Source: a virus
Strand: one strand, 5' to 3'
DNA length: 23,628 nt
IMG/VR virus record: IMGVR_UViG_3300025101_000196
Coordinates: 1-23,628 of that record
Every line of letters begins with the position of its first letter. Position 1 is the first letter of the stretch. The translations under genes were made by a program, and so were the position numbers. Of the stretch, positions 690-22,087 are shown one piece after another. Under the pieces are notes generated by a model that was not told where the DNA came from, ran no database searches, and was given only the letters and a program-made list of their open reading frames with translations.

Positions 690-765
690 TCCAGACTATG
701 ATTTTATAGGCGCTGTGTGCATCACTGTTTTAGCGATGTACTTACTTTCTATTCTTATTTTCTAG
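679..765 (+). CDS. putative 28-aa single-pass membrane microprotein
   Basis: The ATG at 679 opens a 28-codon frame ending at TAG 763-765. The first eight residues are polar and charged (M-K-F-S-P-D-Y-D), and the remaining 20 form one continuous hydrophobic segment long enough to span a membrane. The start lies inside the end of the preceding 63-residue gene (11-base overlap in another frame), as expected for translational coupling. Its own 3' end overlaps the convergent 3' end of the large minus-strand internal-protein gene by 11 bases. It is too short for normal gene callers. It could be a small lysis- or superinfection-related membrane peptide, but nothing specific supports a role. Confidence rests on the overlap geometry and the clean hydrophobic segment. 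Confidence 0.45.
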   Translation: MKFSPDYDFIGAVCITVLAMYLLSILIF

Positions 766-3700
766 CGTTTCGTTTTCTTTTTAATTCTCTTTCTCTTTTT
801 TTACGCTTACCTTCTGGTGAATCTGGACCGTATAATCTTTTATATAAATCAGGATTTATTTTTCTTAATTGAGATTTAGAAATAGGCTTACTTTTTTTGT
901 CTTCATCAAATCTTTTCTTAAGTTGTATACGTCTAGCGTCTTTGTAAAAAGGCACTAATCCAACTTGTCCTAGAGCCTCAAATGTCATTCTATTGGTAAG
1001 CTCTTCAAGAGCTCGATTTCTAGCATCTTCAGTTTTTCTTGTTTGAGATCTAACCGCTAAATCAAAAGCCCTATTTGCACTTCTATATAACGGAGTTATA
1101 GGACCTAATAAAACAGGAAGACCAATTTCACCTAAAGATTTTTTTCCTAGTTGATCAAGATTTATTAAGCTTAAAACTATACTGTTTTCATATGAATTGT
1201 AATCAGCACCTGCTCTTAGACTTTCTAAATAGTTTTTATTCAAATATTCTATTCCTAAATTTATAGGTAATGATGGAATATTACCTAAGCTTTGTCTAAA
1301 CATAAGAGTACTTACTGCTCCAACCATTTGCCTTGCTGCAAACAAATCATATCTGTCTTGCTCGTCTTCTGGAGCTCCAAACAATTGATCCATAAAGTCA
1401 GCGAATAATTTATATAAAACCACGTATGAAGACATTCGAGCAAATACTCCAGCTAGTAAACGCCCGGCTTTACCTTGAGATATTTTTCCTTCTTTTGTCA
1501 ATGCTCCTATGGCAAATTTAGCGGTGGCATATTCATTAAGAGTAAAGTTTGCCATAAAAGAATTTATAGTTCTATAATAATTCATCAAACTTTTTCTAGA
1601 TTCTGGACGTGCCATGTTTTTTATTATACCATTCAAGGGATTACTTGACGTGACTAATTCAACACTAGTACGGTCAGCTTCTCTAACTGCTTCTTTTAGA
1701 GCTTTGTCATATTTAGGATCTAGATATATAGATTTAGAATTCTTTTTACTTAATTCATCGAAATCTTTAACCGACAAATCTATATCTTCATTATTAAATT
1801 CTTTTACTTTATTTTTAAATTCAAACGCAAATTTACTAACCCAAATTGGGCGAGCTATAACTCTATCAGCACCACCCATTAAAAAATCACTAGCTTTAGC
1901 AATCGCTTGATAAGTTTGTTTTGGACCAATAGACGCTAGATATTCCATTTTTTGAGCTACTGGTCCTTGCATGCTAGTTGGCGATTCACTTAAATTTAAA
2001 AAATTACCCTCATCTGCATATTTAGTTTGACCATCTGAGTCTAATATTTTTTGTCCTCGCCTGCCAGCAAGTTTGACTGATTCAGCAGAGTTAAGATTTT
2101 TAAGTAAGTTTATAAAAGTATCATTTGGCTTTGCACCTACCTTACTCCAAACTGGAGCATATTTTCCATATGCATTGCTTACAACCTCAGCTGGCTGCGC
2201 AACTAACATGGTGGCATTACCGATTAATTCAGCGCTAAACCTTGGGGCTGAAGATAATAATTGTCGGTATGCTATACGCTTTATTTCTTTTATGGCCGAA
2301 CGTGATAAATTATTATCCGCCTGCATGTATGTTCTTAGATAAGTAACACGTAAAAGTTCTCTTATTGCTCTTGACAAAGCTATAGCACCTTCCTTTTGTC
2401 CCTTATTACCATTCTTGTATTTTTTTTCTAAAGCCCGCGTTAAATCTTGAACTTCAAGCACTGAAGGAGTTAATTCATAATCTATTAATGTTTCTTGTGC
2501 ACCTCTTTTAGATGATTCAAAAGGGTTGAATTGAATAGCTCTTGGTCCCGCAATCCTTTCTATTATAGTTCCCCCAAAAGTTGAAGGAGCAGCGAATTTG
2601 CTTGACTTGTCAAGAACATCTACATCTGAGGCCTCTTTACTCATTAATACCTGTCTATGAGTATAGTCCTCTATGGTAACAAAAGGTATACCTCTTCTTT
2701 GAGAAGCTTCTTTAGCCTTTTCATATAGAGAGTTGTTCAGTTCAATTACTTTATTAGCAGCAGCTAATTGTTCTTTACTCAATCCTTTTTTAACATTTTC
2801 AGCAGTTATTTGCCCATCTACCTCATACTTGTCAAGAAGTTCTTGTAATGCCGTTGCGTCTCTCATAGTCAGTATAGAGCCATCTTCAATTAATTGTATT
2901 GTAGATCTTAGCATAGCCGCAGCAGGGGGAGAAGTTTCACTTGCCATGTTTGCTTTTATATTGCCTTCATGTTCACGCGCTACTAAATAAATGCCTATTT
3001 CATACGCGTCTTTTAGCTGCTGGTTAGAAGAGACACCTTTCTTTTTTAGTGTATTATAAGCAGCATCCATTTCCTCTACTTTATCTTGCAGCTCAAAACT
3101 CATTTTTGCGTACCCCTCAACCACTGGTCTAAAAACTTTATCGTAAACAACAGTGCTATTTTTTATACCGAGCGTCTGATCAACATATGGTGTAGGTGTG
3201 CTTCTTATACCCTCTAATATTCTACCTCTACCTGTTATTGCAGATTTTAAATTTCTAGCAAATTTTATATTAAAAGCTGAAGCAATTTTTTCTGTGATGG
3301 TGTTAAAGGCGGGTGTAATTTCATTTAAAGATTGTTTTACTTTTTGTTTGATTTCTTCCTTAAATTCTTTTTGCTTTTTTGTTGACTCCTCCTCTATCAC
3401 CGTTTGACTTTCTTGAGACGTTGGCTCAACTTGAGGGCTATCTGGTTGTTTAGGGGTTATCACTACTTCAGCTTCAAATTGCCCATCTCCATCCCTTACA
3501 GCTAGAGTAGCAGTATTTACCTTTCCATCCTTAGTTCTTTTTATTTGTCTTACACCTATTATTTCTAAGCCTTCAATATTATTGTCTTCTAAGTTTAAAT
3601 CAAACTCGTCTAACACAGAAATGGGCGCTAAAGAATTTGGTCTTTCTCTTCCTTTTATTGTTTTAATAAATGTTTGTACAATAACGTCCCCATCTGTCCT

Positions 3701-5932
3701 TATAGCACCCTTAACTTCGCCTTCTACTAGAGGTCTAGGTGCTAAACTAGCATCATCAACATTTAATATGTTGTTTATTTCATCTGAGGTTTTTAATTTA
3801 TAATAAAAATCCCCTCCATCATTAATTGCGACTGAAGTTACTGGTACTTTGGTTGCTAAATTCTTATTTACCAAGGACTCAAATATATCTTGAGTATAAG
3901 GATCAACACTTAAAGAGTTTACATTGAGAGATATAATATTTGAAGAAGGATTTTTTTTAGCTGCTTCTAAAATAATTTTTTCGCCAAAAGGTATTGAATT
4001 ATTAATAGTTTCGCCTTGGTTTATTTCTAATTCAACCTCTAACTCGTTGAAAAGAATGTCATTTTGATTAACATCTATTCCTAAATTTTCAACCATTTCA
4101 TTAATAGCGTTCCCTTCTGGCCCTTCCGCTTTACTAAAAATAAATTCACCTATAGTTTCACCATTTTTATCTACAACAACAGCGTTGTTTTTAGAAAATT
4201 GAAGAATAAATTCTTTACCTACCTCCTCGGTCTCTGAAATTTCAGTTTCAACCTCGCTCTCTTGGGCTGGTTGGCCGGGCGTTTCTTTTTGGGCTTGTGT
4301 AGTCTCTCCGGTAAGCTCTGTGGGTTGATTGTCTCCTTCAACCACTGTTTCGCTAACGTCGGATTGTTCTTCATTAAGTACCTCAGCTGGGCTTTCGATT
4401 GGATTGGCATATCTGTCTGTTATTTTTTTAATATCACTTTTAAGTTGTTCTTCTTTCGAGGCTGTATCTACTGGATTATTCTTTGCATTATCTAAATCTC
4501 TTTGTAAAGGAATTAATGTGTTTAAATCATCCTCCGATATATCAGGATAAGCCCTCTCAAAATTTTCTTTTATTTGTACGTTTTGCTGTGCTTCAGTTTT
4601 TTTATTTTGCAGTTTTTGTTTTAATGAGGAGTCATTTTCAATATCTACTTTAAAGTTAACAAGATCAGTGTCTTCGGCTTTATCAATAAAGTCTTCTACA
4701 AATTCTTTGGTTACACTTTGACCATCCTTAGTATATTTTGCCCTTCCAGGAATAGCTTTTTTTGCAAGCCTGTACGCGGGATTTAAAAACTTTGCAAAAG
4801 TTATCGGGCCACCACCGACTGCTTCTAAGCCTATTTCAGCTGCATCCACTTCTTGACCTGCTACTGCCATACCTGCTCTTTCACCAAGGGCTCCTCCTGC
4901 ACCTTCAACTACACCCGAAGCCAAAACACTAGCAGGTCGGCTTATCCCCTTAGGTATTGCAGACTTTACTATTTTAGTTCCTAGTTTACCTGCCAAGCCC
5001 GAGGTTAAAGCTTCTATAGCTCCTATAGTAACTCCTCTGCCTACAGATTTTCTTTTAATACTACTTATTTTATCATCGTCCTCTAAGACTGCGCGTATGT
5101 TTTCATTAGTGAATGGCTTGCCGTCTAGCTCTTTTTGCAAAAGTTCTGTGAAAGTAGTAGCGGTTTCAAGCATTCCGCTTGCACCAAAAAATGCACCCCC
5201 TAAGGCACCTGTTCCCGCTCCAAACAACGCCCCTGGCCCTGATATTGATGTTAAGGCAGCCCCTGCAGCTGCTCCTGTGCCTGCGCCAGCAATTCCTGCA
5301 GCTATTGATGTAGGATTGACTAGACCCGTAAGAGATGAAATTAATACTTGTGGTGCAACACCAAAGTTTTTTCCTAAAGCTTTTACTGTACCTAGTATAC
5401 CCCCGCCCTCTTTTTGAACATCTTTATAGTATTGTCTGAGCTCATCAGTTGGCCCTTGACGCTGCATAATATCAACAGCTTCACGAAAATCATCTAAGGC
5501 TTCATCAGTTACTTCTTTACCTTGACCGAAAACTGCAAATGCGTCATCCACGCTTGCACCTTGAGAAACACCTGTTTTGTAGGAGCGGTACATATCCCCA
5601 AAAAAATCAGTCACAGGGTTTTTGCCAAATGTTCTTTCTAAAGCAGTATCAGTCTCCCCCGTTTGGATTCTTGGAGTTGTGGGTGATGCGGGTTGCACCG
5701 AAGTGCCATCTTCCAATTCTGATTCCCCATCTCTGTTTTGGCTTGCGTTTTTTTTTTCGGACCAAGCGGTCTTAAAAGTATTTAAATCGGTTGTGTCAAA
5801 TAAACCTTGAGCTAAACCGAGATCATACAAGCCTTGCTGTTGTTGCTCATTAGATTGGGAAAACATATCGTAAGTGATTGCGTCACTAATAATTTCGTTA
5901 TCTAAATAAAGTTTGTATAATTGTTCTAACAT
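755..5932 (-). CDS. very large internal virion / ejection protein (T7 gp16-like position)
   Basis: This 1725-residue protein is last of three internal-protein genes. Its ATG directly follows the TAA of its neighbour with no gap, so translation is coupled. Visible regions: an N-terminal ~60-residue helical module (L-Y-K-L-Y-L-D ... L-G-L-A-Q-G-L-F) of a type I recall from large marine-phage virion proteins; a Gly/Ala-rich, glycine-zipper-like segment at about 205-255 suited to membrane insertion; a long acidic Q/E/T/P-rich, probably disordered stretch (about 430-620); a helical region (about 930-1200); a segment at about 1380-1570 (A-D-R-x-I-A-R-P ... N-Y-Y-R-T-I-N-S-F) resembling 'large polyvalent protein-associated' (LPD38-like) domains; and a strongly basic tail (about 1665-1725). 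I see no lysozyme or transglycosylase motif. By position and build it should be packaged in the head and ejected with the DNA. A second ORF is nested at 4219-4410. The family name is inference; coding status is certain. Confidence 0.85.
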   Translation of the reverse strand: MLEQLYKLYLDNEIISDAITYDMFSQSNEQQQQGLYDLGLAQGLFDTTDLNTFKTAWSEKKNASQNRDGESELEDGTSVQPASPTTPRIQTGETDTALERTFGKNPVTDFFGDMYRSYKTGVSQGASVDDAFAVFGQGKEVTDEALDDFREAVDIMQRQGPTDELRQYYKDVQKEGGGILGTVKALGKNFGVAPQVLISSLTGLVNPTSIAAGIAGAGTGAAAGAALTSISGPGALFGAGTGALGGAFFGASGMLETATTFTELLQKELDGKPFTNENIRAVLEDDDKISSIKRKSVGRGVTIGAIEALTSGLAGKLGTKIVKSAIPKGISRPASVLASGVVEGAGGALGERAGMAVAGQEVDAAEIGLEAVGGGPITFAKFLNPAYRLAKKAIPGRAKYTKDGQSVTKEFVEDFIDKAEDTDLVNFKVDIENDSSLKQKLQNKKTEAQQNVQIKENFERAYPDISEDDLNTLIPLQRDLDNAKNNPVDTASKEEQLKSDIKKITDRYANPIESPAEVLNEEQSDVSETVVEGDNQPTELTGETTQAQKETPGQPAQESEVETEISETEEVGKEFILQFSKNNAVVVDKNGETIGEFIFSKAEGPEGNAINEMVENLGIDVNQNDILFNELEVELEINQGETINNSIPFGEKIILEAAKKNPSSNIISLNVNSLSVDPYTQDIFESLVNKNLATKVPVTSVAINDGGDFYYKLKTSDEINNILNVDDASLAPRPLVEGEVKGAIRTDGDVIVQTFIKTIKGRERPNSLAPISVLDEFDLNLEDNNIEGLEIIGVRQIKRTKDGKVNTATLAVRDGDGQFEAEVVITPKQPDSPQVEPTSQESQTVIEEESTKKQKEFKEEIKQKVKQSLNEITPAFNTITEKIASAFNIKFARNLKSAITGRGRILEGIRSTPTPYVDQTLGIKNSTVVYDKVFRPVVEGYAKMSFELQDKVEEMDAAYNTLKKKGVSSNQQLKDAYEIGIYLVAREHEGNIKANMASETSPPAAAMLRSTIQLIEDGSILTMRDATALQELLDKYEVDGQITAENVKKGLSKEQLAAANKVIELNNSLYEKAKEASQRRGIPFVTIEDYTHRQVLMSKEASDVDVLDKSSKFAAPSTFGGTIIERIAGPRAIQFNPFESSKRGAQETLIDYELTPSVLEVQDLTRALEKKYKNGNKGQKEGAIALSRAIRELLRVTYLRTYMQADNNLSRSAIKEIKRIAYRQLLSSAPRFSAELIGNATMLVAQPAEVVSNAYGKYAPVWSKVGAKPNDTFINLLKNLNSAESVKLAGRRGQKILDSDGQTKYADEGNFLNLSESPTSMQGPVAQKMEYLASIGPKQTYQAIAKASDFLMGGADRVIARPIWVSKFAFEFKNKVKEFNNEDIDLSVKDFDELSKKNSKSIYLDPKYDKALKEAVREADRTSVELVTSSNPLNGIIKNMARPESRKSLMNYYRTINSFMANFTLNEYATAKFAIGALTKEGKISQGKAGRLLAGVFARMSSYVVLYKLFADFMDQLFGAPEDEQDRYDLFAARQMVGAVSTLMFRQSLGNIPSLPINLGIEYLNKNYLESLRAGADYNSYENSIVLSLINLDQLGKKSLGEIGLPVLLGPITPLYRSANRAFDLAVRSQTRKTEDARNRALEELTNRMTFEALGQVGLVPFYKDARRIQLKKRFDEDKKSKPISKSQLRKINPDLYKRLYGPDSPEGKRKKRERELKRKRNARK
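4219..4410 (-). CDS. candidate nested gene: 63-aa 'SKAQ ... LPER' small phage protein
   Basis: This ORF lies entirely within codons 508-571 of the 1725-residue internal-protein gene, on the same strand but in the +1 frame. It starts with M-P-I-Q-S-K-A-Q-L-R-Y-L, continues to N-P-x-L-A-K-x-W-L-K-E-T and then S-L-P-E-R-L-H-K-P-K-K-K. From memory this is the consensus of a widespread family of very small phage proteins: SKAQ, an aromatic/Leu pair, P-x-x-A-K, a T/P turn, LPER-x, then a basic tail. The match runs over roughly 40 residues and begins exactly at an ATG. The ATG is preceded by an A-rich, Shine-Dalgarno-less leader (ATTAAAAAAATAACAG), like the starts of the other minus-strand genes. 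The host-frame protein is low-complexity E/Q/T/P-rich here, which suits overprinting. The last 20 residues are simply basic and may be a by-product. Role unknown. Confidence 0.55.
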   Translation of the reverse strand: MPIQSKAQLRYLMKNNPTLAKQWLKETINPQSLPERLHKPKKKRPANQPKRARLKLKFQRPRR

Positions 5933-7606: not shown

Positions 7607-8386
7607 TTAACTTATTATTATAGGATCAAGATCTTCTTCCATCACTTGAACACTGTTGGCGTCTACTATAGGTGCCGCAGTTACTGAGCCAAACACATCT
7701 TGAAAAGACATTTCTTCAGCTGTATTGGATATTGCAGCAGGATCGACCGCATTATTACCTCCGAACAATGGTAAAGCTTTTAAGCCAGCAGCTCCTGCTG
7801 AAACTAACCCTTGTGCTCCTGATGCCATTTGTTGTTGCTGTGCTTGCCTTGCATCTGCTGCCATAGATTGATAACCTCTAGCCTCTTGTTGTCTTAATCC
7901 TGATTTAACACCTGCAATCCTTGCGTCTTCAGCGGCTATGGCTTTATTTAAACCAAACTGCATGTTAGCTAAATTTTGTCTAGATCTTGCTTGTGCTTGT
8001 TGGTTAATCGCATTCGCTCTTCCTGCCACTGCAATAGCACCTCTTTCTTCTCCCTCTTGCCCTGCTTGCACGATTTGTTGTGTGCCCATTAGGCCAGACA
8101 ACCTTTCTTGTTCAAAAGCCTCTAATGGCGCCGTCACATTCTCAAGATAGTTTGGTTCTATTAAATTTATTGCTGTATCAAAAGCTGTGCTTGCTTTGTC
8201 CGCTGCTTCATTTGCTTTACGTTTTTGTTTGCCAGCTTGTAAAAAATTTAAACCAGAACCAATCAAGCTACTTCCTGCACTAGCTAAAGCTGCAAGAGCC
8301 ATTGGCGCTATAGCCTTGTAAACCGTTACATGTTCTGAAAATAAATTTACTAATATTTCTTGTGCGGCTAATAAGATTCCTGCCAT
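7607..8386 (-). CDS. internal virion protein, 259 aa (T7 gp14-like)
   Basis: This is a 259-residue Ala/Gln/Gly-rich protein. The N-terminus is hydrophobic: M-A-G-I-L-L-A-A then, at residues 29-45, an Ala/Gly/Ser segment able to enter a membrane. A long helical body follows (about 50-190; Q-A-Q-A-R-S-R-Q-N-L, A-R-Q-A-Q-Q-Q-Q) and a Gly-rich stretch near 190-210. T7 gp14 has the same build (hydrophobic start, long Gln/Ala helices) and forms the outer-membrane channel of the ejection machine; the gene order 14-15-16 is also kept here. The start at 8386 fits a -7 promoter box at 8412-8419 about 26 bases upstream. Met29 (8302) is an alternative start. No Shine-Dalgarno is present; the leader is A/T-only. 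Confidence 0.75.
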   Translation of the reverse strand: MAGILLAAQEILVNLFSEHVTVYKAIAPMALAALASAGSSLIGSGLNFLQAGKQKRKANEAADKASTAFDTAINLIEPNYLENVTAPLEAFEQERLSGLMGTQQIVQAGQEGEERGAIAVAGRANAINQQAQARSRQNLANMQFGLNKAIAAEDARIAGVKSGLRQQEARGYQSMAADARQAQQQQMASGAQGLVSAGAAGLKALPLFGGNNAVDPAAISNTAEEMSFQDVFGSVTAAPIVDANSVQVMEEDLDPIIIS

Positions 8387-8426: not shown

Positions 8427-9821
8427 TTAAGGATAGCTTTTCATGATCTGTGCTTGTATGGCAAAGAGCTCCGTAGGCGATGGACCAGTGTTTTCCAAAA
8501 CAAAACGACAGAAGTGACCAAGCAGCCCGTAGGACTCAGCTGTATTGTTCTTTACGCTAACTAAGTAAGGGTCTACAGTAGTAGGTGAGGTCGATCCAGA
8601 AACACTTGCATCTACAACTATATTATTTATATTTTGTTGTAAGTTTATATTTACTGCCGTTACTTGTCCTGCAAGCTCAGGTATATTAGTAAATTCATTA
8701 TTGTAATATAAAAAATCTCCAATACTCAGGATAGATCCAATCTCAAAAAGAGGATCTGTAGAAAACTCAAACTGTCTTGAGCTTGGAGCTCCTGAGTAAC
8801 TAACACATCTTCCCAAACCATTTATAGCTCTTGATGAAAAGTTAGCAAGAAGAGCAGGCGACTGTGTTGTATTTTTTATTGCTGCATACCAAGAACCCTC
8901 TTTGAGTTCAAACCAATTATTACTTATAAAACCATCTGCTTGCAAATCAGTTTGAAGAGTCACATTCCAAGGCTCATCAGATTGTAGGTTTATTGTTTTA
9001 AATAATTTACTAGCAAGAGGCAACTCGTTTATCACACTTGTAATCTCAGAATTATACTGTTCACCATAAAAATTATTTCTTAGTTCGTTAGTGTTATGTC
9101 TCCATAGGTTCCCACCATTAAAGGTGTAAAAATAGTTATTCATCCCTATCATATAGTCAGGATTATAAGAATAGAATGATGGCCATCCTTTTGCCTTCTC
9201 ACTATAGGTTAAAGTAAATTGTGGCCCTAAAGGCACTATAGGTTCAGGCACAGGGTTACTAGGTATAGGAGTAGGTGTAGGGGTTGATGTTGGCACCGGT
9301 GTCTGCCCCGCTGGCGTCGGCGTAGGAGTCGCAGTTGGAGTAGGTGTTATAGGGGTTGCTGTGGGCGTGGGAGTAGGAACAAATGTAGGGGTAGGAGTTG
9401 GTGTATTGGTAGTAACTCCTTCAACACATATTTGTCCTGATCCAAATGCTCCACTATTTTGTGTCTCTAATTTAAATGTATTTACTGTATAGTCACCAGC
9501 TGCTAATGAGCCAATGCTTGTTTGGCTAAACGCAGTAACAACACGGTTAGTTGAATCGGCAACGGGAGCTTGATTAGAAGGATAAAACCTTATCATTTCT
9601 ATACCGTTGGAGTCCAATATTACTCCTAAGGTTCTTACATATCCTTGTCCAGAAATAAAAGTGGCTGTAGCAAATGGTTGAGTAGCTGCGGTAAAAGTTA
9701 ACTCTGGAACTTTTATAGTGGAGATATTGACCACCTCATAGGTAACTCCATCATTAGCTGTATAGGTTGAAACAGCGCTTTGTGAGTTAGTTATTTGAAG
9801 TCCACAATATCTAGCGATCAT
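8427..9821 (-). CDS. tail fibre / nozzle-associated protein with Pro-Thr linker and 'EKAKGW' C-terminal domain
   Basis: This 464-residue protein has three parts. Residues 1-137 form a beta-rich domain with paired Gly/Ala-rich strands. Residues 138-195 are a mucin-like linker almost wholly Pro, Thr, Ser and Ala. Residues ~200-464 begin S-E-K-A-K-G-W-P-S-F-Y-S-Y and contain N-N-Y-F-Y-T-F-N-G-G-N-L-W-R-H and N-N-F-Y-G-E-Q-Y. From memory, this last part matches the segment that normally ends tail stabilization/nozzle proteins of Bacteroidetes podoviruses (consensus like EKVKGW-S-F ... YYTF-xx-G-LW-H ... FYG). Here it is encoded about 5 kb away from the rest of that protein, on a separate fibre-like gene. 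It has its own -7 promoter box at 9841-9848. It is probably a tail surface protein acting in receptor contact; that is inference. Confidence 0.8.
   Translation of the reverse strand: MIARYCGLQITNSQSAVSTYTANDGVTYEVVNISTIKVPELTFTAATQPFATATFISGQGYVRTLGVILDSNGIEMIRFYPSNQAPVADSTNRVVTAFSQTSIGSLAAGDYTVNTFKLETQNSGAFGSGQICVEGVTTNTPTPTPTFVPTPTPTATPITPTPTATPTPTPAGQTPVPTSTPTPTPIPSNPVPEPIVPLGPQFTLTYSEKAKGWPSFYSYNPDYMIGMNNYFYTFNGGNLWRHNTNELRNNFYGEQYNSEITSVINELPLASKLFKTINLQSDEPWNVTLQTDLQADGFISNNWFELKEGSWYAAIKNTTQSPALLANFSSRAINGLGRCVSYSGAPSSRQFEFSTDPLFEIGSILSIGDFLYYNNEFTNIPELAGQVTAVNINLQQNINNIVVDASVSGSTSPTTVDPYLVSVKNNTAESYGLLGHFCRFVLENTGPSPTELFAIQAQIMKSYP
9237..9413 (-). repeat. degenerate Pro-Thr codon repeat (linker of the 464-aa protein)
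   Basis: The plus strand reads as an irregular run of GGNGTNGGNGTN hexamers, translated on the minus strand as P-T-P-T with Ala, Val, Ile and Ser interruptions (residues ~138-195). The same hexamer repeat occurs at 14189-14350 and 15548-15666, so three separate genes share similar repetitive DNA. Confidence 0.85.
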
Positions 9822-9860: not shown

Positions 9861-12158
9861 TTAAGATATTTTTAACCGGTCAATTGGTATCTCCCACAGA
9901 AAGTTTTGATTATCTTCTATACCACCTGATATGATCAAGTAGTCACCATCTTCAATCATCGTGGTAATAAACATAAGACTATATCCTACATATGAATTTA
10001 TAAAAGGAACGGGATTGAGAAATTTAATTTTAAAGTCTTTATCAAAGCCAACAGCATAATGATTATACTTGCGTTCTGAATATATTTTTGTGTGTATTAA
10101 ATATACGTAGCAATCATGCTTTTCAATGTAGATAGGATTAGTGGATCCACCTGTAGTTGTGTTGGATGAAAAATATAATTGATCTCGAGGTAGTAATGAA
10201 CTTAAATTATTTATTGTGTTAATGTGTTCCTTAAAAATAAGCTTGTCAAAATCATAACATTTATATATTATTAGACTTGGCGTGGTTGAGTATACAAAAT
10301 ATAGCTCAGTCTCATGCTCAAAAAATAACCAGTTCTTTTCCCAATAAACTTCTTTGTTACTTACAAAAGCCATTCTATGATACTTCTCTATATTTATTTT
10401 GCCAAGAAAATTGTAATCAGAATCTAAGACACCCATGTAAGTATTAAAGTCAGTGTCTATATATGCTGTGCATAAATATGTCCCCCCTTGGTATGTAAAA
10501 GCTCTATAGTCTTCAAACTTGTGTAATTGATCTGCCCCTTGTATTTGTTTTATTTTTTTCGTTTGTAATTTTAATGAGGCATCAAAGTTATATTCGACTA
10601 GTTGAGTACAAGCTCCTAGTTGTTTCATAAACTTTGTCCTAGATGTATCTTCATCATATCTCGCCACACCTCTGTATCCCTCTTGCGTGGTGTGTATAGT
10701 AATATTATGAGAAACTGTTGGCGCATCCTCGCGACTTAGTAAGATTATTTTTTTTCTTTCGTTATTACCTCTCCATGTCCCTGCAAACATGTGTGTCAGA
10801 TACACATCACCTCTGTCTACAGCAAAAGGATTTTCCGATTTGAAGGAGTTGCTATGGCTTTGGTTAGAACCAAAAGCGTTTATGGGCAACAAGTGGCTGT
10901 CCTTTACTTGTTGTTTGCCTCCAAAGTAACTTATCATGTGTTTGCTAAATCTACCTGGACCTGTATTTTTTAGGACACCATCAACGGGGTTGTTTATTAT
11001 ATCATTGATAATTAAATTAAGAGGCATTTGTTTGGGTGCAGCTGCAAAAGCCCAGTTGCAAACGCTTTTGATTTTGCCATTTACATTGACACCTATACCA
11101 TCAAAGAAAGTATCTTGCTGTTCTAGGTCTGCTTCAAGGCCTACAACAAGCTCTTGGTCTTTGATCCAATTACGCAATGGCTGATTACAGTATATATCCG
11201 CATCTACATATACACCGCCGTTTTCCCAGATGTAGCAGTAACGAAAAAAGTCTGAGCGCTCCCCTCTTTCTTTTAAGCTTTTGTATGCTTCATTGTATAT
11301 GCTACTAGCAAACCACGCATCAACTTTTTCTTGATTAAAATATATCATTTCATATTCTGGGTTGTGCTTTTCAAAAGACTGTATCATGTACTCATTTAAG
11401 TCTAAACTATCGTAAGTTGTAAATATTATAGTGTTAGGTATTTTTTTAAACACCTTGTTGTTTTGCACATAATCAAAGAAAGGTTTATTGTTAAGAGCTT
11501 TCATCTCTTCTCGATAAGCAGGGTACTCAACGTGTAAGACAGGCTCACCGTTGTATTTAAACTGTGTAGTAGTAAAGTCGTGTTGTAATATTTTGACACG
11601 TTCCTTTCCAATTCGTTGATCGCCAAGTTCGTATTCAGTTTCAATATCTCTACCGCAGACTCTGTTTAAACACTTGCCTAACAATCCAGGGCCTGTGTAA
11701 TCTAAATAAAACTGTTCGTGTTTAGATTGAATGTTTTTTACAGCTTGATTGATTGCCTCCCACATTAAAGGATGTTTTGGAGTGACAGCAATAAACGCAT
11801 TGGCTAGCCATTTTTTAGCCATTGGATCATCTCTTACTACCACTAGCTTATCATTAGAATTTATATACTTGTCTATACTAGTTAGACATATTGTGTCGCT
11901 GTCGATATATATACCACCTCTGATATAAAGTACACAGTAACGAAACAAATCAGCTTTGAAAGCACCTGGAAGTATAGTGTCGTATGCTGTTAATACAGGT
12001 TTTTCAAAATGCTCTTTTATAAAATCTATTCTTTCTGCTGCATCATAAAAAAGATACACATAGTCATGATTGTTTACTCTCCAGCTTTCGCAAGCTTTAG
12101 CCATGCCCACGGGTTTGTTCTTGGTTTCAAATGTTTGATGAATTATTTTTGGTATCAT
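9861..12158 (-). CDS. two-domain GT32-type glycosyltransferase fused to a beta-propeller domain
   Basis: This 765-residue protein appears to be a three-part fusion. Domain 1 (1-~230) opens I-P-K-I-I-H-Q-T-F and has F-K-A-D-L-F-R-Y then G-G-I-Y-I-D-S-D (Asp86-Ser-Asp88), the DXD sugar-nucleotide/metal site of GT32 (Gly_transf_sug) enzymes. Domain 2 (~238-470) repeats the plan: R-S-D-F-F-R-Y then G-G-V-Y-V-D-A-D (Asp319-Ala-Asp321). Both DXD motifs are intact. Residues ~485-765 contain F-E-D-Y-R-A-F, E-K-N-W-L-F-F-E-H and G-G-S-T-N-P-I-Y, spaced like the blades of five-bladed GH130/GH43-type propellers; this part is tentative. The start overlaps the upstream GT60-like gene in an ATGA. Its likely role is extending a glycan in the cytoplasm, possibly on the Pro-Thr linkers of the neighbouring fibre proteins (inference). 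Confidence 0.85.
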   Translation of the reverse strand: MIPKIIHQTFETKNKPVGMAKACESWRVNNHDYVYLFYDAAERIDFIKEHFEKPVLTAYDTILPGAFKADLFRYCVLYIRGGIYIDSDTICLTSIDKYINSNDKLVVVRDDPMAKKWLANAFIAVTPKHPLMWEAINQAVKNIQSKHEQFYLDYTGPGLLGKCLNRVCGRDIETEYELGDQRIGKERVKILQHDFTTTQFKYNGEPVLHVEYPAYREEMKALNNKPFFDYVQNNKVFKKIPNTIIFTTYDSLDLNEYMIQSFEKHNPEYEMIYFNQEKVDAWFASSIYNEAYKSLKERGERSDFFRYCYIWENGGVYVDADIYCNQPLRNWIKDQELVVGLEADLEQQDTFFDGIGVNVNGKIKSVCNWAFAAAPKQMPLNLIINDIINNPVDGVLKNTGPGRFSKHMISYFGGKQQVKDSHLLPINAFGSNQSHSNSFKSENPFAVDRGDVYLTHMFAGTWRGNNERKKIILLSREDAPTVSHNITIHTTQEGYRGVARYDEDTSRTKFMKQLGACTQLVEYNFDASLKLQTKKIKQIQGADQLHKFEDYRAFTYQGGTYLCTAYIDTDFNTYMGVLDSDYNFLGKINIEKYHRMAFVSNKEVYWEKNWLFFEHETELYFVYSTTPSLIIYKCYDFDKLIFKEHINTINNLSSLLPRDQLYFSSNTTTGGSTNPIYIEKHDCYVYLIHTKIYSERKYNHYAVGFDKDFKIKFLNPVPFINSYVGYSLMFITTMIEDGDYLIISGGIEDNQNFLWEIPIDRLKIS

Positions 12159-13384
12159 ATGTTGACCACTGTTCTTTCAAGCCAACCTTTAGACGCACTG
12201 TAAGGCCATAATACCCAATGATTAGGTTTTGTCCCATTAAACTCACGCCAAACAGTGAAGTTGTCATTGGCTCCTGACATAAAAGATTGCAATTCATTTT
12301 TGTCAATATCTTTTCTATACATCTCTTCGTTTTTGTGATTTTCAAAAATTAATGCAGCAAACTCAATATCTGATTCAGTAAAATGATTTTTAGTTAAATC
12401 TATACTATGTTTAAACTTAGGATGATAAATAGCATCAACACTTCCAGGGGGCTCAATGTTTTTGGAGCAGGCTTCGGTTATAGCTCTGTCAATAAATCTT
12501 ATGCCTGAATACTGCTCGTAATCTTTTATAGTCCTTACAGTTCCTACATTATAACCTTCAAAACTTTTAGCATTACATGGAGAACAAACCTCTCCATCTA
12601 CTCCTAGTAGCTGCTTTGTTCGATGGTGTGCTCTTTCGTTTTTCATACCCCAATTTTTGTCATCATCCCAATGCTTAGTTCTACCTTGCCGTGTATACTC
12701 ATGCCAAGCTAAAACTTTATGTGGATGAAATAGGTCATACCCCCAAGTAAACGCTCTTACTCCTATAGTAATTTCTTCACCATGAAAATAAAACAAAGGG
12801 TCATGTTGAACTTCTTTACAAAACACACCTAAAGTAAATGCAAAGTGTGCAGAATAAAACCTAGATTTTACAGGCTCTTTTACATAAGCCTCCATATGAT
12901 AAGGCATAAAAAACACTACACCCTCAGGTGTAAATCTATCAAAGGACATACCCCAAGCTTTTCTATGTCGATCTTGAGGGTCGTTAGCAGGGTTATAAGA
13001 TGGTATATAACTAGTCAGCAAAGGTTTAGAGTGACCTTTAGACTGTAGACTTTTCAGCATAGAGATACATTCAGTATCCCACCCTTTAATAAATCTATGA
13101 TGTGAGTCAAGCTGCAAAGTGTAGGTCTCACCGTTATAGTGTTGTTGTATTTGATTACGCGCCCAACATGCTCCTAAAGATTCTTCGTAAGGTATTTCTA
13201 TAATAATAAACCTTGAATCGTTTGCGTATTTTTGTAGGTTATCCCACTTATCTTCGGTGCTAAACTGATGAGCAATACATATGACTAAACGCTCAGGATA
13301 GTGAGCGTTATCAAGAAGATTATCAATTGTGGGTATAAGCTCTGGATCGCGATAACTCGCAATTTGTATAAATATAGATTCCAT
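12155..13384 (-). CDS. GT60-like (PF11397 type) polypeptide N-acetylglucosaminyltransferase homologue
   Basis: This 409-residue protein has the layout of GT60-type GlcNAc transferases: I-F-I-Q-I-A-S-Y-R-D-P-E-L at 4-16, G-A-C-W-A-R-N at 71-77, G-E-T-Y-T-L-Q-L-D-S-H-H-R-F at 85-98 (Asp93/His95 in the place of the DxH-type metal site) and, later, F-H-G-E-E-I-T-I-G-V-R-A-F-T-W-G-Y-D (200-217). Characterised GT60 members (Dictyostelium Skp1 GnT1; Trypanosoma cruzi mucin alpha-GlcNAc transferase) transfer GlcNAc from UDP-GlcNAc to hydroxyproline or Thr of proteins. The C-terminal ~80 residues are outside the core and unrecognised. It overlaps the GT32 gene by 4 bases and lies 21 bases after a Pro-Thr fibre gene. 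Family call is firm from motifs; substrate is inference. Confidence 0.85.
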   Translation of the reverse strand: MESIFIQIASYRDPELIPTIDNLLDNAHYPERLVICIAHQFSTEDKWDNLQKYANDSRFIIIEIPYEESLGACWARNQIQQHYNGETYTLQLDSHHRFIKGWDTECISMLKSLQSKGHSKPLLTSYIPSYNPANDPQDRHRKAWGMSFDRFTPEGVVFFMPYHMEAYVKEPVKSRFYSAHFAFTLGVFCKEVQHDPLFYFHGEEITIGVRAFTWGYDLFHPHKVLAWHEYTRQGRTKHWDDDKNWGMKNERAHHRTKQLLGVDGEVCSPCNAKSFEGYNVGTVRTIKDYEQYSGIRFIDRAITEACSKNIEPPGSVDAIYHPKFKHSIDLTKNHFTESDIEFAALIFENHKNEEMYRKDIDKNELQSFMSGANDNFTVWREFNGTKPNHWVLWPYSASKGWLERTVVNI

Positions 13385-13405: not shown

Positions 13406-14527
13406 TTAAAAGCCTGTTGGCGGTGGTGTGCTAAACGTTGGTCTTGATCCGCTAGAAGATGACGTTGTGCTGCTTGAATTAGTGCATTGACTACAACTAG
13501 ATAGCGTATATGCTATTCCACTAACATATACAGCACTTCCTACGTTACTTACAGTACCGCTTATTGTATAGCAAGTATCAGTATCTGATGAGTATACGAC
13601 ATCACCTATATTAATGCCTCTTTGTTGTAAATCAATAGCTGTTTCTTGTGTCAATTCTGTTCCTCCGTAACCAAAACATCTAGTAAGGATGTAATGTTCA
13701 GCTGTGGGACAGTTGTAATCACAAGTAGTAAATCCTGCGTCTCCTTCTTTCACACCATTAGCATCTTCACAAGACAAGTTGGTAAGCTCTGTATATCCTG
13801 TTGTTCCTGTCACTTGACTGTTAACGAGATAATTATTGTTAGACCCGTCGACCAATCTGACGTTTAATGCATAAGTATTTGTAGTCGCAAACACATAATC
13901 TTCATTGGTATTACAATTTCTTACAACATAATAATTTGTAACTGGTTGAATTGGTTGAGATGGACACCCTGCAATGTTTGGCACTAATTCCATAGTAGCA
14001 GTACACACAAGTGAAGAGCTGACATTGTTTTTAGCTGTCGTTGAGCTATTATAAGTATAATAATCTTGAGTATTTGGATTTAAATAGCGAGCTCCTCCAC
14101 CTAATGCAGTTTTGCTAAATATGTAACATGATTCACTTACACTACTTCCAGGACATGGATCGAGTTGATAGTATTTACCAGCCACAATAGGTGGTGTCGG
14201 AGTTGTTGGAGACGGTGTTGGAGTCGGTGTAGGTGTAGGTTGTGACGGCACTGCTGTTGGGGTGACTGCGCTTGTTGGTGCAGGTGTATGAGTTGGTGTA
14301 GGTGTAACGGTTGGAGTTGGAGTTGGAGTTGACGTAGGTGTAGGTGTTGGTCCAGCGCAATTACAATTTTCCTCTACTTGTAATAAGCAATTTACTTGTT
14401 CTCTTGAAATAATACTATCAGAATAAAAGCCATCAGGGGCACATTGCGTTAATGCAGAGTCTGTAAATAATGCAGTTGCTGTCGCAAAGCTGTTAGAGTC
14501 AAAGTAGAATGTTCCTAGTGTAGCCAT
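13406..14527 (-). CDS. Cys-rich tail fibre/adhesin-like protein with Pro-Thr linker and three ~80-aa repeats
   Basis: This 373-residue protein has an N-terminal module (1-58: F-Y-F-D-S ... L-F-T-D-S-A-L ... A-P-D-G-F-Y-S-D), then a mucin-like linker (60-113), then three tandem modules. Each module starts with an aromatic-Tyr-x-(Leu/Val)-x-x-Cys motif, at residues 119 (Y-Y-Q-L-D-P-C), 199 (Y-Y-V-V-R-N-C) and 278 (H-Y-I-L-T-R-C), a spacing of 79-80. It ends in a Ser/Thr-rich tail. Such modules are typical of exposed adhesin parts of Bacteroidetes phage tails. It has no signal peptide, so the many Cys are unlikely to be oxidised before lysis unless assembled in a special way. It follows the nozzle-type gene by 6 bases and precedes the GT60-like gene by 21, so it is a natural substrate candidate for that enzyme (inference). 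Confidence 0.8.
14189..14350 (-). repeat. degenerate Pro-Thr codon repeat (linker of the 373-aa protein)
   Basis: The plus strand holds GGNGTNGGNGTN-type hexamers, encoding Pro-Thr-rich residues ~60-113 on the minus strand with Ser, Val, Ala and His interruptions. It is the second of three such tracts in the window. Confidence 0.85.
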
Positions 14528-14533
14528 TACTTA

Positions 14534-17500
14534 TTAACAATTAGATAGATTATTTACCGTTGAATTTATATTTATTCTAGCAGATTGTCCATTTCCTGAG
14601 CCGCAAGGAGAAGGCTGATACCAATAAAGCCCTGATCCTGTTCCTCCTGAAATTGGCGCAACATCGCTAAGTTTTTGTTTTTTAGCCGTATCAACATAAA
14701 CAATATCATTCAAAGATAAACAACTTGTGTTACCTGTATGATAAAATGTTTGTGTTGGTGAGGAGCTTCCATTTGTGCATGCATTAGATGATGTCGTCCA
14801 AAAATAATTATACGCCGTCATTGTAAATTCTTGCAAGCATGTCTCGTAATAACTAGATCCGATAAAGTTAACGATTCCATTTGCACCTATATAAAATTTT
14901 AATCCTGGTGCACCAGACGTTTGTAATGCTGATCCATAATACATAGGTAGTCCTGTTCCTGCATCGCTGCCATTAAAGGTGTTTTGTTGTAACGCATCAG
15001 TATATGCAATAACCGCATAGTTATTAGAATAAGCAAAATCTAAATCTGCCGTGCTCTGTATATTAACTGGCGAGCCTCCACCTGGGCTGTAGAACAAGTA
15101 CATAAACGCTCCGCTAGCTACATTATAATTACACGAATCTGATTTGTTAGTAAATCCATTTTGCTCACCGCCATTTAAATACCAAGCTACTGGAGATGGA
15201 TTAGCTGTAGGTGTAGGCGGCGGTGAACATGTTGATAAATTAGACACTTGTCCGTAATTACCGCTAGGATCACCACCCAACAAAAATGTTTGTCCTGTAT
15301 TTGGTGGATATGCGGTTTTAAAATACGTGTCAAACCCATTGTAAGGAACGTTAAAAGTAGGAGTAGTATAAATAATTAAATTGTTATTTACCACGTCTTG
15401 CCAAGATGTTACGTTTTGCGTAAAATATGCAGTTTGGAAATTTGAAGCGACTTGTCCGTTGCAAGCGCCTGAAGCTGTTGAATACCCTGAAGATGGATTT
15501 GTTCCGCCTCCAGTATTGCTAGGATAAAACGGTAACGTGTTGGCTAAAGGCGTTACGGTAGGTGTCGGAGTAGGTGTAGCAGTCGGAGTTGGCGTAGGTA
15601 CGTATGGAGTCACAGTAGGTGTTGGCGTAGGAGTCACAGTAGGTGTTGGCGTAGGAGTGGCTACTCCACCAGGGCACCCTAAAGTATACTGCCATGTGCT
15701 ATTAGAAATTGGTGCAAAAACTTTTACTGTTGCCGTTGTTGTAGCGGTAGATTTTGTAAACGATGCTGTGCCCGTGCCTACGCCTTGAATTGTTTCTGCT
15801 GGCTGTCCTAAGTTTGCAAGAGCCGCATTTAAATCTCCTTGTTGTGACGAATTGCCTCTATAACCTGTATTAATAACCTCAACACCATCAAACTCTACAA
15901 TAAATTTATCAGGCTCTCCTAATGCAGCATAAGACAGTTCTACTGTTCCCGTACCTGTTCCGAGATCTACATTTCTTATATCTGGATAAGCATAACCGCC
16001 GCCTTGTACCGTGTTACAATTTATTGTTGGACCAAGAGGTTGACCATTACAACATGCATCGTATGCAGATACTCCTTGGTTTAAGAATATTTCTGTTGGT
16101 TGTCTGTAATCCCAAATCATATAAAGTATATCCCCTACATTGTTTGGCATAGCGAATTCCGCAGAGAATTTATTTCCTGAAGTAACTATTGGTGTTGCTT
16201 CGTCTGATGCGCCTAATAATAAATTAATAGAAGAAGTGTCGTTTGGATATAAAGTGTTTGTTCTTAAATATCTAAACTTATTTAGTGAGGTGTTAAAGTT
16301 GAAGTTATCACTGAGTATTTTGTTGCTTATCATGTTAACTAACGCACCTTGGTTTGGTATTACACCAGTTCCTATAACTCCAGAGACACTTTCGTATTGT
16401 GATACAATTGGGTTGTTTGTAGAGCTAGCAAAAGTTACTAAGCTAGAGTGGAGCGGTGAACTAAATATATTGTCAGTCCACGAGTATTGATTGTGTATTG
16501 ATAAGCCTGCATCACTTGCGCTTGTTAAAGCTATATTGTATATAGTCAAAATATTTTGTATTGGGCACTCAGTTGTTATTTGTATGGTGTCAGAGACCAA
16601 CGAATTAGTAGTAACAATTAAAGTAACTTGAGTTGCTTCGACACTATTTTTATTTATTGTTAATGTTCCGCTAACATATACTAATCCTGTTGTGTGTTCC
16701 ACATTGTTATAAATAGCTTTTATTGTGTAGCCCACACCAGTCGTAGTGCCTTCAGTTCCTATGTCGATACCTTGTTCTGTAACTAACTGTTCGTTTCCTG
16801 TGCCTGATTCAGAAAATATATCATCTTCATAAGAGTTCGGAATAACATAATTAATAGCTACGTTGCCTACGTTTTCTGTTACATTAACACAATAAATAGT
16901 TTCCGCCGCAGGATTTACTACAACGTTTTCTGTGACACCACAAGGTAAACAGTTTGTAAAGCCAGCAATATTTTCACCGTTGCTTGCTAATACATACTCA
17001 TTCATGTATGGGTCATATCCACCAAGTTTTTGATTGCCTATGGTATCAATAAAGAAATCTCTAAACCATCCTCGCATTCCCACTTCTGATATAACCGCTA
17101 AGACTTCAGGACCAACTTCACCACCTTTTAATTGTAATACTGCACCTCTTTTTGCATCAGTAAAAAACTTGTCGTTTCCATATACCGCAAAACTTTCAGG
17201 GTTATTACTGATGCCGAACTCTTCGTCTCTTGCTATCTGCTGACCCAAAACTGTAGGAACAGAAGTCAAAGTACCTCCTCCTCCTGCGTCAGTTAGTATA
17301 TCTTTGCCCTGTAATACGTATGATATTTTATCTTCTTGAAATGTAAGTATGTCCGTTCTTCTGGCATGAAGCTTCTGTATAGGGCCATAGATGTCTTCTA
17401 ATGGCTTAAAATTAGCTAAGCCTAGGTTGAACTCATTTAATTTATTTACGTTCGACTCATCGTTAAAAACACCGCTATACGTAAGGTCTGCAAATCTGTG

Positions 17501-20126: not shown

Positions 20127-21173
20127 TTAACTAGTTAATGTATAAGTTACTTGATCCGTTAAAGTTAATCCGTTTATTATTACAGTGCCCCCCGATTCAG
20201 GATTTTGTGTATCACCGTTCCCATCTGTATATGAAAAAATTGAAGGCGTGTAGTTTGCCGTAAAAGTTCCTGTAGAACCATCATCACCTTTTATTGATCC
20301 AGCTATGGCGGATGCGCCTGGATTTGAAATAGTGTCAGCATTTATTAAATTAATTGTAGATGTTCCCGAATTTGTGTTAGTTGAAAATTGAGTGAGTGCT
20401 AAGCCTTGAGCAAAGTTGGAACCTTGTATACCATAACCTTTTGTAATAGGCAACCCCAAATTATCTGTATAACAATCTACACCAGGTAAAGGTATTTGAT
20501 TTAAACTTGGGCTTACACCTTGACCAAAACCTGACAATGGATTTGGACAACCCAACAACGTACCTCGATGAAATCCTATAAACTCTGTGCCTGCCACTAA
20601 TAATGATTCAGCCTTAAATTTCCACAAAGCTGCAATAGGCCCTGGAGGATTACCATCTAGCAATGGCTCTTTGTAAGAACGATTAACGTTTATAAATCTA
20701 GGTGCATTTAAGTTGTCAGTAAAAAAAAGTAATTCACCAATAATATTTATACCTGTTATTAGATTCTGTGGATTAAAATTAAGAGTTGTATTTATACCGC
20801 TGCCGTCATCCGTACTAACTACATGATATGTTACTTGCGCTGTTTTAGTATCAAAAGATACAATCATATCACATTTACCTGTATCGGCCAAAGTAAAATT
20901 TGGATCATGCACAAACCAATATATGGTTTCATTTGCACTATCTTGAAAAGCCCCGATACATCTAGCTTTAGGACTTAACGCTTGTTTATCTAAAAAGAAT
21001 AGCGCGCTAAGTTGAGAGTTACCTTTGGTGTTTTCTACTGAACCTATTTCGGATGCCTCAGTAGAACCAAGCCTTACATTTAAAGCATCTTCATATTCGC
21101 CATTAGGTATAAGCCTTTCATCAAGGCTTTTATTCATACGGCCTGCAATAAAATTTCTTTGCGATTTTGCCAT
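20127..21173 (-). CDS. tail nozzle/stabilization protein, N-terminal part on a separate gene
   Basis: This 348-residue protein has N-F-I-A-G-R-M-N-K-S-L-D-E-R-L-I-P (about 6-22), G-E-Y-E-D-A-L-N-V-R, S-V-E-N-T-K-G-N and, later, L-L-F-F-T-D-N-L-N-A-P-R-F-I-N (about 150-165). From memory this is the conserved start of Bacteroidetes-phage tail stabilization proteins, where the chain would normally run on into the I-D-Q-F-T-A-E-S-L-L-V-I-K-K-P-P segment that here begins the next gene. Instead ~180 extra Gly/Ser/Thr/Asn-rich residues follow and the frame stops one base before the next ATG. ATG overlaps the previous TAA by one base (TAATG), so this gene is translationally coupled to the ring-protein gene. 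The two halves probably assemble together at the portal-distal tail. Confidence 0.8.
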   Translation of the reverse strand: MAKSQRNFIAGRMNKSLDERLIPNGEYEDALNVRLGSTEASEIGSVENTKGNSQLSALFFLDKQALSPKARCIGAFQDSANETIYWFVHDPNFTLADTGKCDMIVSFDTKTAQVTYHVVSTDDGSGINTTLNFNPQNLITGINIIGELLFFTDNLNAPRFINVNRSYKEPLLDGNPPGPIAALWKFKAESLLVAGTEFIGFHRGTLLGCPNPLSGFGQGVSPSLNQIPLPGVDCYTDNLGLPITKGYGIQGSNFAQGLALTQFSTNTNSGTSTINLINADTISNPGASAIAGSIKGDDGSTGTFTANYTPSIFSYTDGNGDTQNPESGGTVIINGLTLTDQVTYTLTS

Positions 21174-22087
21174 TACTTAATCCACTTATTCTCTCCTCTT
21201 AAGTTCATTAACAACCTACCAGGATGAATATCACTTAATCGGATTTTTGCATTTCTTAATAACGCTGATTTATCTTTTCGTGCTCTGTTTATTATGTACT
21301 CTTGAACACCAAATTTATTATTTAATAACGCATATTTTATATATGCGTATATGTAATCTTCAAATAGTTTATTCACACTTATTTTTGAATCGTCTCCATT
21401 TTCCATACCATCAGATATGTATTCTAAAATACATTCTTGATTAGCCATAGTAGAATCAAAATTTATTACACCTGCTTTTTTATCAATAGTAAAAGTAGGA
21501 TTCATGTTTGCTGTTTCAGTATTTAGTCCATAACGAGCTCCTATGTATGTGTCGTAATAATCTTCATTAAAAGGAGGCATATCCACTCCCTCCATCCTTG
21601 CTTGATTGAGATAGATACTGTTTAGAGCACCGTCTTGTCTAGCTGTATCTAATGAGGAGGTTTTGGTATTAACATTACCGCTGCCGTCATATGTAAACGT
21701 TGCAGTTGCGGATTGCACATACGAGAGAGCAGATTGAACTTGAATGTTTTCAACAAGAGGAAATATAGTGTTGTCTTTAAATAGAGATACACGGACCCAA
21801 TTAACAAAATCGGAGGGTAAAACAAATCTTAAATCAGAATAAACTGTAAGCTGTAAAGATTTAATTTCTTTGAATGCATCATAATTTAGTTCTTGAACAC
21901 CTCTTTTGGCGTGAAACAATATCTTATACCTTTCCTCGTTATTAATAAGAGAGTGGTTTCCATTGTACATTAACAAAAAGTTTGTAACTATATCTGCGAG
22001 ACTTACATATTGATAAGAACCCCAATTTTCATTAGTGGGGTTTATGTTATCATTAGTGTAATATTTTTCCTGATTTATGTATGCCAT
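21173..22087 (-). CDS. head-tail connector / ring protein, 304 aa
   Basis: This is a 304-residue soluble protein with Y-V-S-L-A-D-I-V-T-N-F (about 27-37), H-A-K-R-G-V-Q-E-L-N-Y-D (about 59-70), S-D-L-R-F-V-L-P-S-D-F-V-N-W-V (about 83-97) and a basic C-terminus, A-K-I-R-L-S-D-I-H-P-G-R-L-L-M. I recall this pattern from a conserved protein next to the stabilization protein in Flavobacteria and crAss-like podoviruses, usually called tail tubular or ring protein. It lies 2 bases after the 330-residue gene and shares one base with the nozzle N-part gene. The role as a ring below the portal is inferred from neighbours and recalled similarity. Confidence 0.75.
   Translation of the reverse strand: MAYINQEKYYTNDNINPTNENWGSYQYVSLADIVTNFLLMYNGNHSLINNEERYKILFHAKRGVQELNYDAFKEIKSLQLTVYSDLRFVLPSDFVNWVRVSLFKDNTIFPLVENIQVQSALSYVQSATATFTYDGSGNVNTKTSSLDTARQDGALNSIYLNQARMEGVDMPPFNEDYYDTYIGARYGLNTETANMNPTFTIDKKAGVINFDSTMANQECILEYISDGMENGDDSKISVNKLFEDYIYAYIKYALLNNKFGVQEYIINRARKDKSALLRNAKIRLSDIHPGRLLMNLRGENKWIK

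What the first reader, a model, noticed from the sequence alone, without database searches (positions are those of the whole stretch)
4219..4410. Nested gene in another frame: SKAQ/LPER small protein inside the giant internal-protein gene
A 63-codon ORF on the same strand, shifted by one base within codons 508-571 of the 1725-residue protein, begins at its ATG with the conserved core of a very common small phage protein family (SKAQ-x-R-Y-L, P-x-L-A-K-x-W, LPER followed by Lys). A ~40-residue family match starting precisely at an ATG is very unlikely by chance in a shadow frame. The main frame is low-complexity here, as if overprinted on an older small gene. A-rich leader before the ATG resembles the real starts in this window.
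Basis: partly seen in the sequence, partly recalled or inferred. Interest (0 to 1): 0.8.

Follow-up and report, generated by a model that had tools for sequence, protein, structure and literature searches.

The report
Conserved small gene inside giant gene
This phage carries a small, unannotated gene hidden inside a much larger gene in a shifted reading frame; dozens of related phages keep it there, and evolution protects it more strictly than the large gene around it, so standard annotation very probably misses a protein these phages use.

Summary
On the minus strand, 4410->4219 encodes a 63-aa protein in the +1 frame inside codons 508-571 of the 1725-codon gene 5932->755. Direct Pfam/PHROGs/NCBIfam scans give no hit, but a profile of its relatives does: it belongs to the SKAQ...LPER family, phrog_1375 (function unknown). 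Every giant-gene homologue found by the first scan that reaches the site carries it, starting at ATG, always +1. Over the scans, 101 of 101 distinct embedded members (host ORF >=250 aa) lie at +1, in giant genes and in a ~400-aa gene between portal and a major structural gene. Within the overlap, fourfold-degenerate sites of the host frame are nearly frozen (0/25 versus 48% elsewhere in one pair), and the small frame is better conserved than the host frame, the reverse of the rest of the gene. In sister phages the same gene sits free directly after the giant gene. AlphaFold gives two short helices plus a basic tail; the host protein turns disordered where the overlap begins. I conclude: a genuine embedded late gene, probably internally initiated, analogous in arrangement to Rz1 in Rz. 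Expression is not shown; a role in virion assembly or packaging is inferred only.

The parts
4219..4410 (-). Embedded SKAQ/LPER gene, 63 codons, ATG at 4410-4408, TAG at 4221-4219; basic protein (pI 12, charge about +17)
755..5932 (-). Host gene: 1725-codon giant gene of the late/structural module (phrog_32588, function unknown)
4411..4440 (-). A-rich leader of the embedded gene without Shine-Dalgarno motif (aaagtgatattaaaaaaataacagacagat|ATG)
4219..4411 (-). Host-frame segment, codons 508-571, acidic disordered linker (pI 4.1, charge about -17); a confidently helical region ends just at its start

Best explanation
The ORF is a genuine gene of a small phage protein family (phrog_1375-like), embedded in the +1 frame of a giant late gene of a flavophage-type podovirus. 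SHOWN: the reading frame, its start codon and its protein sequence are conserved in relatives and under purifying selection stronger than that on the host frame; the host frame there is predicted to be only a disordered acidic linker; close relatives carry the same gene free-standing right behind the giant gene. INFERRED: ribosomes start at the internal ATG on the giant gene's mRNA (A-rich leader without Shine-Dalgarno motif, like most other genes of this window), so the small protein is made alongside the giant protein. The small gene is the older partner and was enclosed when a giant ORF came to read through it. INFERRED, weak (about 0.3): the product, a two-helix hairpin with a basic tail, works in virion morphogenesis, for example as a head/portal-binding or cargo-loading factor, because the family sits beside portal, scaffold-position, major structural and giant-protein genes, and also occurs as the N-terminal part of larger proteins. 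The confidence given is for the coding claim, not for the function.
For: Giant homologues that reach the site carry the ORF at +1; 101/101 distinct embedded members at +1. Fourfold host-frame sites in the overlap: L005-L009 0/25 vs 48% gene-wide (P = 8e-8), L006-L022 1/11 vs 63%, L017-L010 1/16 vs 50%; scaffold-type hosts 19.7% vs 50.1% over 462 non-independent pairs. Window vs L034/L035/L036: small frame 94/92/84% identical, host frame 68/76/68% over the same bases. One copy per record in 14 of 15 records searched plus MW202828; in an elemo phage record and in MW202828 it is embedded +1 in a giant gene. Sister phages with the gene free behind the giant. AF2: small protein mean pLDDT 83, helices 6-15 and 17-26; host segment pLDDT about 30-50 in the overlap after a helical region above 90.
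Against: No expression data. The window protein has no direct library hit. No SD motif at the start. Related Cellulophaga, Maribacter and Tenacibaculum phages lack any member, so it is not needed by all such phages. Function rests on gene neighbourhood only, and neighbours vary (next to a holin gene in Streptomyces phage FlowerPower). Most relatives are metagenomic contigs.
Confidence: 0.85

Rival explanations
1. Chance shadow ORF: the giant protein's own sequence is conserved and the +1 frame is open incidentally.
For: Shadow ORFs of 50-116 aa are common in this window; low-complexity host segment.
Against: Host-frame identity is lower than small-frame identity in the overlap, and host-frame fourfold sites are nearly frozen; the same protein is encoded by free-standing genes; recoding the peptides with this phage's codons leaves the +1 host frame open with probability about 1e-3 to 1e-4.
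Confidence: 0.02
2. The SKAQ stretch is made not by internal initiation but by +1 ribosomal frameshifting from the giant frame, giving a truncated giant with a SKAQ tail.
For: Always the same +1 offset; few codons between the last in-frame stop and the ATG.
Against: M1 is invariant in all aligned members including free-standing ones; upstream sequences share no obvious slippery motif (by eye); free-standing genes have their own starts.
Confidence: 0.05
3. An RNA or DNA signal rather than a protein explains the suppressed synonymous change.
For: Nearly frozen fourfold sites alone could reflect any sequence constraint.
Against: What is conserved is the amino acid sequence of the +1 frame, across different hosts and codon choices, with free-standing homologues. 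RNA structure was not tested separately.
Confidence: 0.03
4. The small gene is real but not a virion-assembly factor (for example a host-takeover or lysis-related protein) that merely rides in the late operon.
For: Family function unknown; variable neighbours, including one next to a holin gene.
Against: Many sampled members lie beside portal, scaffold-position, structural or giant genes.
Confidence: 0.4

Closest known systems
PHROG family phrog_1375 (unknown function), SKAQ...LPER/LPEK small phage proteins
   Same: Same N-terminal core (M-P-x-x-S-x-A-Q ... P ... A ... T ... L-P); relatives of the window protein hit it at E 3e-6 to 1e-3
   Different: The window protein itself does not reach the model; a large branch is embedded in other genes, and in the annotated records seen here it is not annotated
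Lambda Rz1 (o-spanin) embedded in the +1 frame of Rz; spanin genes with embedded, overlapped and separated architectures (PMC6139136)
   Same: Complete same-strand +1 embedding of a small late gene; embedded, overlapping and separate versions exist; embedded ones are usually missed by gene callers
   Different: Unrelated proteins: no Cys for a lipobox here; host is a giant gene, not an i-spanin
Long phase-1 overlapping genes in general (PMC2542354)
   Same: The +1 preference matches the known excess of long phase-1 overlaps, attributed there to NAT-GNN codons making ATG starts
   Different: That work treats bacterial gene pairs; here one family is embedded in several different genes
Giant gene of Flavobacterium phages vB_FspP_elemoA-F (Elemovirus)
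   Same: Late giant 'structural protein' gene with the same small ORF at +1, not listed as a feature
   Different: Giant is about 3700 aa and has no detectable direct BLAST similarity to the window's giant, only to its homologues; small protein is 42 aa

Membership tests
phrog_1375-like SKAQ/LPER small proteins | Direct hit of the window protein to the PHROG model | tested here: not met
   No family at E <= 1
phrog_1375-like SKAQ/LPER small proteins | Continuous profile similarity to members that do hit the model | tested here: met
   One alignment with invariant M1 P2 S5 Q8 P17 L33 P34; L042, L053, L057, L072 and others hit phrog_1375
phrog_1375-like SKAQ/LPER small proteins | Known biochemical function | not testable with these tools
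   PHROGs lists unknown function; no paper found under that name
Embedded overlapping gene (Rz/Rz1-type arrangement) | Complete same-strand out-of-frame embedding | tested here: met
   +1, codons 508-571
Embedded overlapping gene (Rz/Rz1-type arrangement) | Selection on both frames | tested here: met
   Small frame strongly constrained; host frame kept open in nearly all homologues although random recoding would close it; host residues themselves weakly conserved
Embedded overlapping gene (Rz/Rz1-type arrangement) | Both proteins produced | not testable with these tools
   No expression or peptide data
o-spanin (Rz1) | Lipoprotein signal peptide with lipobox Cys | tested here: not met
   The 63-aa sequence has no Cys and no hydrophobic signal (translation)

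The most novel reading that the evidence does not exclude
The SKAQ gene is a recurrent overprinting module: in several phage lineages it has been enclosed independently by different late genes, always in +1, because that phase turns its basic coding sequence into a soluble, acidic, disordered linker (charge about -17 against +17 for the small protein). The linker may also hold the small protein, so that one stretch of DNA encodes a binding pair.
Probability: 0.15. Interest if true: 0.85.

Novelty: new variant of a known kind. Interest (0 to 1): 0.62.

Why it matters
It adds a well-supported embedded gene to dsDNA phages outside the lysis cassette, in a lineage with cultured relatives (elemo phages of Flavobacterium) where expression can be tested at once. 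It shows that a branch of a widespread small protein family is missing from annotations, since gene callers do not report it inside giant genes. The same gene seen embedded, partly overlapping and separate in related phages gives a natural series for studying how overprinting starts and what it costs.

Tried and rejected
Direct Pfam, PHROGs and NCBIfam scans of the 63 aa gave nothing. PDB sequence-profile search returned only repetitive beta-propeller chains with per-repeat scores near zero and two unrelated chains: spurious. Foldseek of the model against PDB: one match, E 7.6, none usable. phrog_1384 (Mom-like) match to one member, E 0.08: too weak. A below-cut-off Pfam match on the DarB-like host giant L085 was not used. 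I first expected the +1 bias to follow from stop-codon composition; recoding showed the opposite (+2 would be open far more often); the published start-codon explanation (PMC2542354) fits better. I expected a clean insertion/deletion of the small gene between relatives; alignment instead shows an unrelated linker of about 40-80 residues (29-81 depending on the pair) at the site. Tree of the small proteins: only 50 columns; 7 label changes on the best tree, few forced by well-supported branches, so the number of independent embeddings is uncertain. Papers: nothing on this family or on the elemo giant gene.

Full report
OBSERVATION. The ORF is on the minus strand, 4410 (ATG) to 4219 (TAG), 63 codons: MPIQSKAQLRYLMKNNPTLAKQWLKETINPQSLPERLHKPKKKRPANQPKRARLKLKFQRPRR. 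It lies in the +1 frame of the 1725-codon gene 5932..755, from codon 508. Same-strand shadow ORFs of similar length occur elsewhere in the window, so length proves nothing; conservation has to.

FAMILY. Single-sequence scans of Pfam, PHROGs and NCBIfam gave no hit. tblastn against annotated phages pointed weakly to 68 Flavobacterium phage records (elemo group); in the one read in detail the matching ORF (42 aa, MPFKSKAQMKACYSQDNPKWDCKKWSKETPNKKSLPNKVKKK) is also in the +1 frame inside an 11-kb 'structural protein' gene and is not annotated. Scans of IMG/VR with the giant protein and with the small protein gave 30 and 16 loci. A profile of the small ORFs then found a member in every giant homologue of that set that reaches the site; those without one are short fragments that end before it (L024, L028, L029). 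Alignment of 37 members: invariant M1 P2 S5 Q8 P17 L33 P34. Several relatives hit phrog_1375, unknown function, at E 3e-6 to 1e-3.

EMBEDDED OR FREE. A wider scan classified by reading frame gave 88 embedded hits, all at +1, and 33 free-standing plus 4 partial. A further scan seeded with a different member gave 31 new distinct embedded members, again all +1, and 39 free-standing. Pooled, 101 distinct embedded peptides in hosts of >=250 aa, 101 at +1, 71 of them in ORFs of >=600 codons. Many share ancestry, so these are not independent events. Hosts are: the window-type giant genes; a second cluster including a DarB-like giant (L085, phrog_10089); a giant with a histidine-phosphatase domain (L052); and a ~400-codon gene between portal (phrog_6547) and a major structural gene (phrog_13704), i.e. 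the scaffold position. A 50-column tree needs 7 changes between giant, scaffold-type and free states, but few are forced by well-supported branches.

SELECTION. In ten homologues of the L005 clade, host-frame fourfold-degenerate sites inside the overlap differ in 0-3 of 11-26 sites, against 15-63% gene-wide; for example L005-L009 0/25 against 48%, binomial P 8e-8. Small-frame identity is at or above host-frame identity in the overlap in nearly all pairs and below it elsewhere; for many pairs no other window of the gene reaches the same value. For the window's own nearest small-gene relatives L034, L035, L036 the small frame is 94/92/84% identical and the host frame 68/76/68% over the same bases, and against L035 and L036 the overlap is the only stretch of the giant that BLAST still aligns. 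One search pairs were chosen by small-protein identity, which favours the small frame; one search has no such selection. The scaffold-type hosts show the same trend: 19.7% against 50.1% fourfold differences over 462 non-independent pairs.

ANATOMY. The leader is A-rich without a Shine-Dalgarno motif, as in nearly all genes of the window; the ATG ranks 4th of 90 internal ATGs by A content. That fits a Bacteroidota-type host; a structural protein of the window (21173-22087) matches phages of Flavobacterium, Cellulophaga, Maribacter and Tenacibaculum. AlphaFold2 gives a two-helix hairpin (6-15, 17-26) with a basic tail, mean pLDDT 83, no PDB fold match. The host protein around the site is helical with pLDDT above 90 up to about residue 510 and low-confidence (disorder-like) from there on. 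The overlap encodes charge +16.6 in the small frame and -17.2 in the host frame. Recoding the small peptides with this phage's codons leaves the +1 host frame open with probability about 1e-3 to 1e-4, the +2 frame 0.05-0.17, so the open host frame is maintained, and the +1 phase is not explained by stop codons. A published start-codon argument (PMC2542354: ATG arises from NAT-GNN in phase 1) fits the observed host residues Asp/Asn-Ala at the start.

HISTORY. In five sister phages (L142-L146; several proteins about 45-73% identical to window proteins) the SKAQ gene is free, starting from 17 nt before to 10 nt after the giant's stop codon. Their giants align with embedded-type giants on both sides of the site, but the segment between aligns at background identity: an unrelated linker, mostly 40-80 residues. 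L148, a more distant phage, shows a partial overlap of a small upstream ORF at the same phase. Thus embedded, overlapping and separate states coexist, as known for spanin genes (PMC6139136). Fifteen records searched with the profile each held one copy, except a 105-kb contig with two, both embedded; complete MW202828 has one, embedded +1. Cellulophaga phi38:1 and phi19:3, Maribacter Panino and Tenacibaculum Gundel_1 have none.

FUNCTION. Not shown. Gene neighbourhood (portal, scaffold position, major structural gene, giant gene) argues for virion morphogenesis. Members also occur as N-terminal parts of longer proteins, for example before DUF5661 (L165) or before glycine-zipper and metallopeptidase-like segments (L169), which would suit a targeting or loading module. 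I put this at about 0.3.

CAVEATS. No expression data; most relatives are metagenomic contigs; pair counts are not phylogenetically independent; the AF2 host segment rests on 14 sequences.

Noticed in passing
window 8427-9821, 13406-14527, 14534-20125 (-): Three late genes encode Thr-Pro repeat tracts (TPTPTPTP), and two glycosyltransferase-like genes (9861-12158, 12155-13384) lie between them; possibly glycosylated virion linkers. Enzyme identity judged by eye, not by HMM.
   Followed up: no
L147 (contig IMGVR_UViG_3300030101_004148, 105 kb): One contig holds two giant genes, each with its own embedded SKAQ gene; either two related late modules or a chimeric assembly.
   Followed up: partly
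L021 about 7614-7676 and L008 about 8991-9345: The giant frame is interrupted (in L021 just before the embedded gene, with a frame change) while close relative L030 is intact; sequencing error or real split not resolved.
   Followed up: no
L165:3498-4493, L169:5001-6275, L183, L184, L190, L192, L193, L205: SKAQ segment as the N-terminal part of longer proteins, one with DUF5661 and one with glycine-zipper plus metallopeptidase-like matches.
   Followed up: partly
L148:15501-15954: A 127-aa ORF overlaps the first half of a SKAQ gene at the same +1 phase: a possible intermediate state of enclosure.
   Followed up: partly
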